Source: Pseudomonas sp. GD03919 (lineage in GTDB: Bacteria > Pseudomonadota > Gammaproteobacteria > Pseudomonadales > Pseudomonadaceae). Taken from it: 64,000 nt of DNA. A model generated the notes under the pieces. It saw only the letters and a program-made list of their open reading frames with translations. It was not told the DNA's origin and searched no databases. Numbering within the stretch: position 1 is the first letter of the stretch; every line of letters begins with the position of its first letter. The stretch covers positions 3,968,001 to 4,032,000 of the forward strand of contig NZ_CP104582.1 in assembly GCF_029814935.1 (NCBI RefSeq). The letters run 5' to 3'. Positions 26,900-29,149 of the stretch are shown here, in pieces. A program made the position numbers and the translations under genes.

Positions 26900-29149
26900 A
26901 TGAGCGAATCCCTCGATTTGAGCCTGGAAGGCGTTGAACGCCGGTCACTCGCCGATTTCACCGAGCAGGCTTATCTCAACTACTCCATGTACGTGATCAT
27001 GGACCGCGCCCTGCCGCACATCGGCGACGGCCTGAAACCCGTACAACGGCGCATCATCTACGCCATGAGCGAATTGGGCCTGGACGCCGACTCCAAGCAC
27101 AAGAAATCCGCGCGTACCGTCGGTGACGTGCTCGGCAAGTTCCACCCGCACGGCGACATCGCCTGCTATGAAGCCATGGTGCTGATGGCGCAACCGTTCA
27201 GCTACCGCTACACCCTGGTCGACGGCCAGGGCAACTGGGGTGCACCGGACGATCCCAAGTCCTTCGCCGCCATGCGTTATACCGAGGCGCGCCTGTCGCG
27301 CTACTCCGAGGTGCTGCTGTCCGAGCTGGGCCAGGGCACCGTCGACTGGGTACCCAACTTCGACGGCACCATGAACGAGCCGGCGACGCTGCCGGCGCGC
27401 TTGCCCAACCTGCTGCTCAACGGCACCACCGGCATCGCCGTGGGCATGGCCACCGACGTGCCGCCGCACAACCTGCGCGAGGTAGCCGCGGCCTGCGTAC
27501 GCCTGCTCGATGAGCCGGGCGCCACGGTCGAGCAGCTGTGCGAACACATTCAGGGGCCGGACTTCCCCACCGAAGCCGAAGTCATCACGCCCAAGGCCGA
27601 CCTGCTGAAGATTTACGAAACCGGCCGCGGCTCGGTGCGCATGCGCGCCGTCTACAGCGTCGAGGACGGCGACATCGTCGTCACTGCCCTGCCGCACCAG
27701 GTCTCCGGGGCCAAGGTACTGGAGCAGATCGCCGCGCAGATGCAGGCCAAGAAGCTGCCGATGGTCGCCGACCTGCGTGACGAGTCGGATCACGAGAACC
27801 CCTGCCGCATCGTCATCATCCCGCGCTCCAACCGCGTTGATGCCGATGAGCTGATGACCCACCTGTTCGCTACCACCGATCTGGAGTCCAGTTACCGGGT
27901 CAACACCAACGTCATCGGCCTCGACGGCAAGCCGTCGGTCAAGGACCTGCGCACGCTGCTCAGCGAATGGCTGGTGTACCGCGTCGGCACCGTACGCCGC
28001 CGCCTGCAGTTCCGCCTGGACAAGGTTGAGCGTCGCCTGCACCTGTTGGAAGGTTTGCTGATCGCCTTCCTCAACCTCGATGAAGTCATTCGCATCATTC
28101 GCAGCGAGGATTCGCCCAAGCCGGTGCTGATGGAAACCTTCGGCCTGACCGATGTGCAGGCCGACTACATTCTCGACACTCGCCTGCGCCAATTGGCTCG
28201 CTTGGAAGAGATGAAGATCCGTGGCGAGCAGGACGAACTGTCCAAGGAGCGCGACAAGCTGCTGGCCCTGCTCGGCAGCGAAGCCAAGCTGAAGAAGCTG
28301 GTGCGCAAGGAGATTCTCGAGGACGCGGAAAAATACGGCGACGACCGTCGCTCGCCGATCGTCGCCCGCGCCGAAGCCCGTGCCCTGTCGGAAACCGAGC
28401 TGATGCCGACCGAGCCGGTCACCGTGGTGCTCTCGGAAAAAGGCTGGGTGCGCTGCGCCAAAGGCCACGATATCGACGCAACGGGGCTTTCCTATAAAGC
28501 AGGCGACGGTTTCAAGGCCGCAGCGCCGGGCCGATCCAACCAATACGCGGTATTTATCGACTCGACCGGTCGCAGTTATTCGCTCGCGGCTCACAGCCTG
28601 CCGTCGGCGCGTGGCCAGGGCGAGCCACTCACCGGCCGCCTGACCCCACCGCCCGGCGCCACCTTCGAGTGCGTGATGCTGCCGGAGGACAGTGCCCTGT
28701 ACGTGATCGCCTCCGATGCCGGCTACGGCTTCGTGGTCAAGGGCGAAGACCTGCAGGCCAAGAACAAGGCGGGCAAGGCGCTGCTGAGCCTGCCCAACGG
28801 TGCCAAGGTGGTTGCACCCAAGCCGGTCAATAACCTGGAAGACGACTGGCTGGCCGCCGTGACGACAGAAGGCCGCCTGCTACTGTTCCCGGTGCGCGAC
28901 CTGCCGCAACTGGGCAAAGGCAAGGGCAACAAGATCATCGGCATCCCCGGTGAGCGCGTGGCCAGCCGCGAGGAGTACCTGACCGACCTGGCCATCGTAC
29001 CGAGTGGCTCCAGCCTGGTGTTGCAGGCTGGCAAGCGCACCCTGACCCTCAAGGCCGATGACCTCGAGCATTACAAGGGCGAGCGCGGCCGGCGTGGCAA
29101 CAAGCTGCCGCGCGGTTTTCAGCGCGTCGACCAGTTGCTGGTGGAATAA
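26900..29149 (+). CDS. parC: DNA topoisomerase IV subunit A, with Ile at the quinolone-resistance position 87
   Basis: A 749-residue DNA-cleaving subunit. Tyr127 in AAMRYTEARLS is the residue that attaches to DNA. The quinolone-resistance region reads KFHPHGDIACYEAMV: residue 87 is Ile (codon ATC, 27158-27160) where E. coli (Ser80) and P. aeruginosa (Ser87) have Ser. Glu91 is unchanged. Ser-to-Ile at this site is a classic fluoroquinolone-resistance change and is one base from the Ser codon AGC. The C-terminal beta-propeller DNA-wrapping domain (about 490-749) is complete. The ribosome site is weak (AATGAGGCCCGC). It closes the parE-to-parC unit. Confidence 0.97.
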   Translation: MSESLDLSLEGVERRSLADFTEQAYLNYSMYVIMDRALPHIGDGLKPVQRRIIYAMSELGLDADSKHKKSARTVGDVLGKFHPHGDIACYEAMVLMAQPFSYRYTLVDGQGNWGAPDDPKSFAAMRYTEARLSRYSEVLLSELGQGTVDWVPNFDGTMNEPATLPARLPNLLLNGTTGIAVGMATDVPPHNLREVAAACVRLLDEPGATVEQLCEHIQGPDFPTEAEVITPKADLLKIYETGRGSVRMRAVYSVEDGDIVVTALPHQVSGAKVLEQIAAQMQAKKLPMVADLRDESDHENPCRIVIIPRSNRVDADELMTHLFATTDLESSYRVNTNVIGLDGKPSVKDLRTLLSEWLVYRVGTVRRRLQFRLDKVERRLHLLEGLLIAFLNLDEVIRIIRSEDSPKPVLMETFGLTDVQADYILDTRLRQLARLEEMKIRGEQDELSKERDKLLALLGSEAKLKKLVRKEILEDAEKYGDDRRSPIVARAEARALSETELMPTEPVTVVLSEKGWVRCAKGHDIDATGLSYKAGDGFKAAAPGRSNQYAVFIDSTGRSYSLAAHSLPSARGQGEPLTGRLTPPPGATFECVMLPEDSALYVIASDAGYGFVVKGEDLQAKNKAGKALLSLPNGAKVVAPKPVNNLEDDWLAAVTTEGRLLLFPVRDLPQLGKGKGNKIIGIPGERVASREEYLTDLAIVPSGSSLVLQAGKRTLTLKADDLEHYKGERGRRGNKLPRGFQRVDQLLVE

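What the first reader, a model, noticed from the sequence alone, without database searches (positions are those of the whole stretch)
27158..27160. ParC carries Ile at the quinolone-resistance position 87
The motif reads HPHGDIACYE, where E. coli (Ser80) and P. aeruginosa (Ser87) have HPHGDSACYE. Counting from the start puts the Ile at 87 and the unchanged Glu at 91, the same numbers used for P. aeruginosa. ATC is one base from AGC (Ser). Ser-to-Ile here is a well-known fluoroquinolone-resistance change in E. coli. It suggests past antibiotic selection, or else a natural variant of this lineage. gyrA is outside the window and normally mutates first.
Basis: partly seen in the sequence, partly recalled or inferred. 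Interest (0 to 1): 0.72.

Follow-up and report, generated by a model that had tools for sequence, protein, structure and literature searches.

The report
ParC and GyrA fluoroquinolone-resistance mutations
A Pseudomonas chromosome carries the classic pair of single-residue changes in its two DNA topoisomerases that are linked to fluoroquinolone resistance, together with a multidrug-resistance integron, so this is a well-known kind of antibiotic-selected change and not a new biological feature.

Summary
In detail: parC is 26900-29149 (+), codon 87 (27158-27160) is ATC (Ile), Glu91 is unchanged. Ile87 is not the norm: Ser in 80 of 80 loci from titled genome records. Of 61 near genomes with both codons read, 56 are Thr83/Ser87, 4 Ile/Ile, 1 Ile/Ser and 0 Thr/Ile, as expected if gyrA changes first. 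Local trees of both genes reject one clade for the three closest Ile87 genomes. The chromosome carries a class 1 integron with two VIM-family metallo-beta-lactamase genes, aminoglycoside cassettes and sul1. The only other genome of the species in hand has both changes plus an IMP-family gene. The 5' half of parC lies in a block resembling other species, but about a quarter of comparable windows do (30 of 112), so import of the resistance codon is possible, not shown. No further change was seen in ParE or in the GyrB segment compared. MIC is untested. Ordinary, known mechanism.

The parts
26900..29149 (+). parC, topoisomerase IV subunit A, 749 aa
   Evidence: ORF; TIGR01062 1148 bits over cut-off 629
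27158..27160 (+). codon 87, ATC (Ile) in place of Ser
27170..27172 (+). codon 91, GAA (Glu), the acidic partner residue, unchanged
23464..25362 (+). parE, topoisomerase IV subunit B, 632 aa; no residue unique to this genome against 16 relatives apart from the first residue, an effect of how the relatives were trimmed
25450..27850 (.). block holding the 5' half of parC in which this genome groups with G255/G078/G202/G270/G063 (support 90/100) and not with G012, its closest relative in flanking parE and, weakly, in 3' parC
   Evidence: control for the whole window

Best explanation
This is a target-site fluoroquinolone-resistance genotype, ParC Ser87Ile added to GyrA Thr83Ile, selected by antibiotic exposure in a multidrug-resistant Pseudomonas. 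Shown: both codons, their absence in most relatives examined, their co-occurrence, more than one origin, and the resistance integron in the same chromosome. From published work on other species: Ser (ParC 80/87, GyrA 83) and an acidic residue four positions on hold a water-Mg2+ bridge to the quinolone; a bulky hydrophobic residue disturbs that contact while the enzyme still works. Inferred: high-level ciprofloxacin resistance in this strain, and gyrA changing before parC.
For: ParC I87 codon; GyrA I83 with D87 intact. 61 genomes with both codons read: 56 T/S, 4 I/I, 1 I/S, 0 T/I; one-sided Fisher p 9.6e-6, or 1.2e-4 without the conspecific G255 (relatedness not modelled). 80 of 80 loci from titled genome records Ser. 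Changes forced by supported branches: 4 for 4 parC carriers, 4 for 5 gyrA carriers. One clade of G000+G255+G064 rejected locally: gyrA p 2e-5, parC p 1.9e-7. Integron with intI1, VIM family, ANT(2'')-Ia, AAC(6')-Il, aadA1 and sul1. Conspecific G255: IMP-family and RTG-family beta-lactamase genes on a contig with intI1. Literature, passages seen: P. aeruginosa ParC87 changes only together with GyrA T83I (PMC6243147); ParC S87L arising on a GyrA T83I background in experimental evolution (PMC8262867); bridge mechanism (PMC9917921); gyrA T83I in 16 of 17 fluoroquinolone-resistant non-aeruginosa Pseudomonas and Stutzerimonas isolates (PMC13261756).
Against: No MIC for this strain. Efflux regulators were not examined. 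Both genomes of this species carry the pair, and local trees do not reject a single origin for those two (p 0.08 gyrA, 0.14 parC). Sul1 exceeded its cut-off only in G000 among 20 genomes, so the QRDR changes of G255, G064, G317 and G054 come without that marker. Integron integrases as such are no marker of drug exposure here: 13 of 20 genomes, mostly with wild-type codons, have one over the cut-off. On mechanism, an E. coli GyrA S83A enzyme was not ciprofloxacin-resistant (PMC9917921), so loss of the serine hydroxyl alone may not suffice and side-chain bulk matters.
Confidence: 0.93

Rival explanations
1. Natural variant of this species: Ile at both positions is fixed in the lineage and gives intrinsic reduced susceptibility unrelated to clinical drug exposure.
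For: The only two genomes of the species in hand (G000, G255) carry both changes; local trees do not reject one origin for the two.
Against: The near relative G012, of another species, has Thr/Ser. The pair also appears in G064 and G317, apart from G000/G255 on the trees. Both conspecific genomes carry acquired metallo-beta-lactamase genes, so the sample is biased to drug-exposed strains.
Confidence: 0.05
2. The resistance codon arrived by homologous recombination: a roughly 2.4 kb block with the 5' half of parC came from a relative of G078/G202 and brought Ile87 with it.
For: Block 25450-27850 groups G000 with G255/G078/G202/G270/G063 (90/100), and in that tree G000 and the Ile87 genome G255 are sisters (79/99, not a firm fork); parE (100/99) and, weakly (73/17), 3' parC group G000 with G012; AU p 0.024 against G000+G012 in the block, a pair chosen after seeing the identities. 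Within 200 bases of codon 87, G000 differs from G202 at 6 of 400 sites and from G012 at 37 of 400.
Against: Apart from G255, the sampled members of that group (G078, G202, G063, G270, G177, G369) have Ser87. Near the codon G000 is about as close to Ser87 genomes as to G255: 10 (G255), 6 (G202), 9 (G078) of 400 sites; 10, 8, 11 of 500; and in the first 600 bases G255 falls outside G000 with G202, G078 and G270 (90/90). 30 of 112 windows of 500 bases across the 64 kb show the same switch, so a mosaic block at this codon is not special.
Confidence: 0.12
3. Sequencing or assembly error at 27158-27160.
For: No reads were available.
Against: Identical codon in three other assemblies, an in-frame codon at a known resistance site, and a matching gyrA change.
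Confidence: 0.01

Closest known systems
E. coli ParC Ser80Ile with GyrA Ser83 changes (QRDR multiple mutants)
   Same: Same ParC residue and the same Ser to Ile substitution at the equivalent column; paired with a GyrA change at position 83 (PMC5715326 passages, name parC Ser80Ile; the rest is recalled)
   Different: Position numbered 87 here; the wild-type GyrA residue is Thr here and Ser in E. coli; no MIC measured here
P. aeruginosa GyrA Thr83Ile with ParC Ser87Leu or Ser87Trp
   Same: Same genes, same residue numbers, same GyrA change; no parC change without a gyrA change (PMC6243147 passages)
   Different: P. aeruginosa codon 87 is TCG and was seen as TTG or TGG; near relatives of this genome mostly have AGC/AGT, and AGC is one base from ATC. 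Two papers do not fit neatly: PMC12241228 reports Ser87Ile in P. aeruginosa (codon not seen) and PMC7158017 prints the Ser87Leu change as TGC to TTG, although TGC is not a serine codon.
Metallo-beta-lactamase-carrying non-aeruginosa Pseudomonas with gyrA T83I (PMC13261756, passages)
   Same: Non-aeruginosa Pseudomonas with VIM genes and gyrA T83I
   Different: The word parC does not occur in its main text; its single P. oleovorans isolate was not counted as ciprofloxacin-resistant

Membership tests
ParC, topoisomerase IV subunit A (TIGR01062) | score above the curated cut-off over the full length | tested here: met
   1148.3 bits, cut-off 628.9, residues 12-746
ParC, topoisomerase IV subunit A (TIGR01062) | partner subunit gene parE nearby | tested here: met
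   parE at 23464-25362, 1043.5 bits to TIGR01055
Fluoroquinolone-resistance QRDR substitution | change at the Ser position (ParC 80 in E. coli, 87 in Pseudomonas) | tested here: met
   Ile87 in motif HPHGDIACYE; Ser in the two aligned solved chains and in 80 of 80 loci from titled records
Fluoroquinolone-resistance QRDR substitution | accompanied by a change in the primary target GyrA 83/87 | tested here: met
   GyrA Ile83, Asp87
Fluoroquinolone-resistance QRDR substitution | raised fluoroquinolone MIC | not testable with these tools
   no phenotype data for this strain
Fluoroquinolone-resistance QRDR substitution | absent from susceptible relatives | tested here: inconclusive
   absent from 57 of 61 near genomes, whose susceptibility is unknown
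Class 1 integron (C1:4617520-4626964, outside the window) | IntI1 integrase with cassettes and sul1 | tested here: met
   NF011946 799.5 bits, cut-off 435; VIM, ANT(2'')-Ia, AAC(6')-Il and aadA1 above cut-offs; Sul1 641 bits, cut-off 600
Class 1 integron (C1:4617520-4626964, outside the window) | qacE delta 1 between cassettes and sul1 | not tested
   not searched
Qnr quinolone-protection protein (considered) | score above the Qnr cut-off | tested here: not met
   strongest pentapeptide match in G000 (C1:2190731-2191075) scores 40.8 bits against NF033086, cut-off 240; the other pentapeptide place in G000 (C1:3688236) was not scanned

The most novel reading that the evidence does not exclude
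The quinolone-resistant 5' half of parC was exchanged between Pseudomonas species by homologous recombination, as reported for QRDR genes in Neisseria (PMC8973304, abstract), so that target-site resistance in this species complex can spread by gene conversion as well as by new mutation.
Probability: 0.12. Interest if true: 0.4.

Novelty: already known. Interest (0 to 1): 0.2.

Why it matters
It turns a single odd codon into a coherent resistance genotype: two target changes plus a multidrug integron in a less-studied Pseudomonas. It also shows that the same two codons have changed more than once among close species, and suggests that the ParC replacement seen (Ile here, Leu or Trp in P. aeruginosa) follows from which serine codon the lineage uses. 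This is of practical use for resistance prediction from genomes, but is no new mechanism.

Tried and rejected
Read-level error: made unlikely by three further assemblies with the same codon. Lineage-wide natural variant: unlikely. Import of the codon by recombination: looked striking in the first sliding comparison, then weakened by the whole-window control, 30 of 112 windows, and by the local distances; exchange of a very short stretch around the codon alone is not excluded by any tree. A Qnr-type gene: the strongest pentapeptide match in G000 is far below the Qnr cut-off (40.8 against 240 bits); the second one (C1:3688236) was not followed up. GyrB: the segment SSQEVGTLITALGCGI is the same in G000, G012, G064, G255, G202 and G317; rows G054 and G078 were extracted from the wrong frame and are dropped, and they spoiled the script's test for unique GyrB residues, so only that segment was checked.

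Rows dropped and sampling. One search kept the best 80 of 584 relatives and may leave out records very near the window; some titles are unnamed species or MAGs. The genus searches saw 398 genomes drawn from a larger group, with capped lists of places. The 61 genomes were picked by me from those lists (the 30 best of each gene and others with both places listed), so they are not a random sample. The sets overlap: G303 has the same parC as P. guguanensis L005. In one search my start motif missed 3 of 30 G loci (G318, G394, G154) and 67 of 80 titled loci for full-length parC, so the tree has 20 rows (18 G genomes and 2 titled loci) and those have 28 (parC) and 30 (gyrA). In some searches, 29 of 60 stretches did not show the motif that demanded (37 genomes with both codons); I refetched and read gyrA codon 83 with a shorter motif, giving 61 of 61.

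Papers. parC, S87I and Pseudomonas mendocina together: 0 papers. S87I with parC: 14 papers, by title or abstract start all on Neisseria. Ser87Ile with parC: 2 papers, one on P. aeruginosa, one on Providencia. Searches were seen as listings. Passages were read in PMC13261756, PMC5715326, PMC12241228, PMC7158017, PMC6243147, PMC9917921 and PMC8262867; of PMC8973304 the abstract and section list. These searches cover only the held open-access library.

Full report
Observation. parC is the + strand ORF 26900-29149, 749 aa, 1148 bits against the ParC model TIGR01062. Codon 87 is ATC at 27158-27160 and codon 91 is GAA. The two solved topoisomerase IV chains shown in alignment, 1zvu and 6bq9, have Ser at this column.

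Setting. The window is C1:3968001-4032000 of a single 4,658,387-base contig. The nearest titled parC loci are Pseudomonas sp. P818 and P. guguanensis, both 97% at protein level. No tool named the species. From recall, P. guguanensis belongs to the P. mendocina/P. oleovorans group.

Companion gene. gyrA at C1:1755364-1758129 encodes Ile at 83 and Asp at 87. In the 30 best GyrA loci, Ile83 occurs in 5: G000 (this genome), G255 (same species), G064, G054 and G317 (L142 is G317).

How common. All 80 loci kept from titled records (of 584 found) have Ser87: TCG 58, AGC 11, AGT 5, TCC 5, TCT 1. In 61 near genomes with both codons read, picked from the lists of two searches of 398 genomes, 56 are Thr/Ser, 4 Ile/Ile (G000, G255, G064, G317), 1 Ile/Ser (G054) and 0 Thr/Ile. 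The one-sided Fisher p is 9.6e-6, or 1.2e-4 without G255; this does not model relatedness. The nested pattern matches the published order in P. aeruginosa, where ParC changes were found only with, or arose after, GyrA T83I (PMC6243147 passages; PMC8262867 passages).

Origins. With the codon removed, whole-gene trees force 3 changes for three parC carriers, 4 for four parC carriers and 4 for five gyrA carriers; the tool warns that three changes can also be one gain and two losses. Because genes here are mosaic, I repeated this on the first 600 bases: one clade of G000+G255+G064 is rejected in gyrA (p 2e-5) and parC (p 1.9e-7), while G000+G255 alone is not (p 0.08 and 0.14). So most likely at least two origins among these three, and probably another in the more distant G317. 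Exchange of a very short stretch around the codon would escape these trees.

Mosaic parC. G000 groups with G012 in parE 23464-25150 (support 100/99) and, weakly (73/17), in 3' parC, but with G255/G078/G202/G270/G063 (90/100) in 25450-27850, the block that holds codon 87; there G000 and the Ile87 genome G255 are sisters with 79/99 support, and AU p is 0.024 against G000+G012 (identities). Control: across the whole window 30 of 112 comparable 500-base windows show G078 or G202 more than 3 points closer than G012, and 43 show the reverse. Exchange between species is therefore general here, and a block at this codon is not special. Near the codon, G000 is about as close to Ser87 genomes as to G255: 10 differences of 400 to G255, 6 to G202, 9 to G078 (10, 8 and 11 of 500), and in the first 600 bases G255 falls outside a group of G000, G202, G078 and G270 (90/90). 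This fits a change after any exchange at least as well as import of the resistant codon.

Why Ile. Near genomes mostly use AGC or AGT at codon 87 (41 of 61; TCG/TCC 16; ATC 4), and ATC is one base from AGC. P. aeruginosa uses TCG and was seen to change to TTG (Leu) or TGG (Trp) (PMC6243147). PMC12241228 reports Ser87Ile in P. aeruginosa (codon not seen), and PMC7158017 prints Ser87Leu as TGC to TTG, where TGC is not a serine codon; both remain unresolved.

Other resistance in the chromosome. An intI1 integrase at L174:13951-14964 (C1:4625951-4626964) adjoins cassettes AAC(6')-Il (three copies), VIM-family metallo-beta-lactamase (two), ANT(2'')-Ia (two) and aadA1, then an IS110-family transposase, sul1 and an IS6-family transposase. 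Repeat spacing is 2091 bases, with 300-base reference copies 100% identical at three places. One copy of each cassette was scanned with NCBIfam; the other copies have the same translations. The five best plasmid matches are annotated VIM-2 (99.6% over 48% of the query); other listed ones are VIM-1, VIM-4 or VIM-86 (capped at 5000 records). Integron integrases in general are common in the group (13 of 20 genomes over the cut-off), but Sul1 is above its cut-off only in G000 among the same 20. The conspecific G255 has IMP-family and RTG-family beta-lactamase genes and ANT(2'')-Ia on an 8,390-base contig with an intI1 that lacks its last 24 model positions.

Mechanism. Published work (PMC9917921 passages) describes a quinolone-bound Mg2+ whose waters hydrogen-bond to the conserved serine and acidic residue; for E. 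coli topoisomerase IV the bridge serves mainly to position the drug. An isoleucine side chain cannot make that bond. The same paper found that GyrA S83A was not ciprofloxacin-resistant, so bulk may matter as much as the lost bond. The step to this protein is inference; it was not modelled. ParE has no residue unique to G000 apart from the trimmed first one, against 16 relatives, and the GyrB segment compared is the same in five relatives. The strongest pentapeptide-repeat match in G000 is not Qnr (40.8 bits, cut-off 240).

Verdict. A known resistance genotype in a less-studied Pseudomonas, well supported by sequence, with phenotype untested.

Noticed in passing
L174:3621-14964 (G000 C1:4615621-4626964), outside the window: Class 1 integron with a 2091-base repeated cassette unit: two VIM-family, two ANT(2'')-Ia and three AAC(6')-Il copies, then aadA1, an IS110-family transposase, sul1 and an IS6-family transposase.
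   Followed up: partly
L176 (G255 contig C134, 8390 bases): The other genome of the species carries IMP-family and RTG-family beta-lactamase genes and ANT(2'')-Ia beside an intI1 that ends early; the neighbouring ORF looks like an IS6-type transposase by eye.
   Followed up: partly
window 18478-18584 +: TPP riboswitch, 84.9 bits against a gathering score of 54.3.
   Followed up: no
window 40501-44000: Block 91-97% identical to G078/G202 but only 66-81% to G012, G064 and G255; the ORFs look like lipopolysaccharide-core kinase-type proteins (by eye, not scanned).
   Followed up: no
window 33501-39000: Ten of eleven 500-base windows lack enough match in G012, G078, G202, G064 and G255; the eleventh is 72% in three of them. 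ORFs look like an O-antigen ligase and glycosyltransferases (by eye), so probably a variable surface-polysaccharide locus.
   Followed up: no
L142 (G317 gyrA): The search reports one in-frame TAA inside the matched stretch of gyrA in this genome, which carries the Ile/Ile pair.
   Followed up: no
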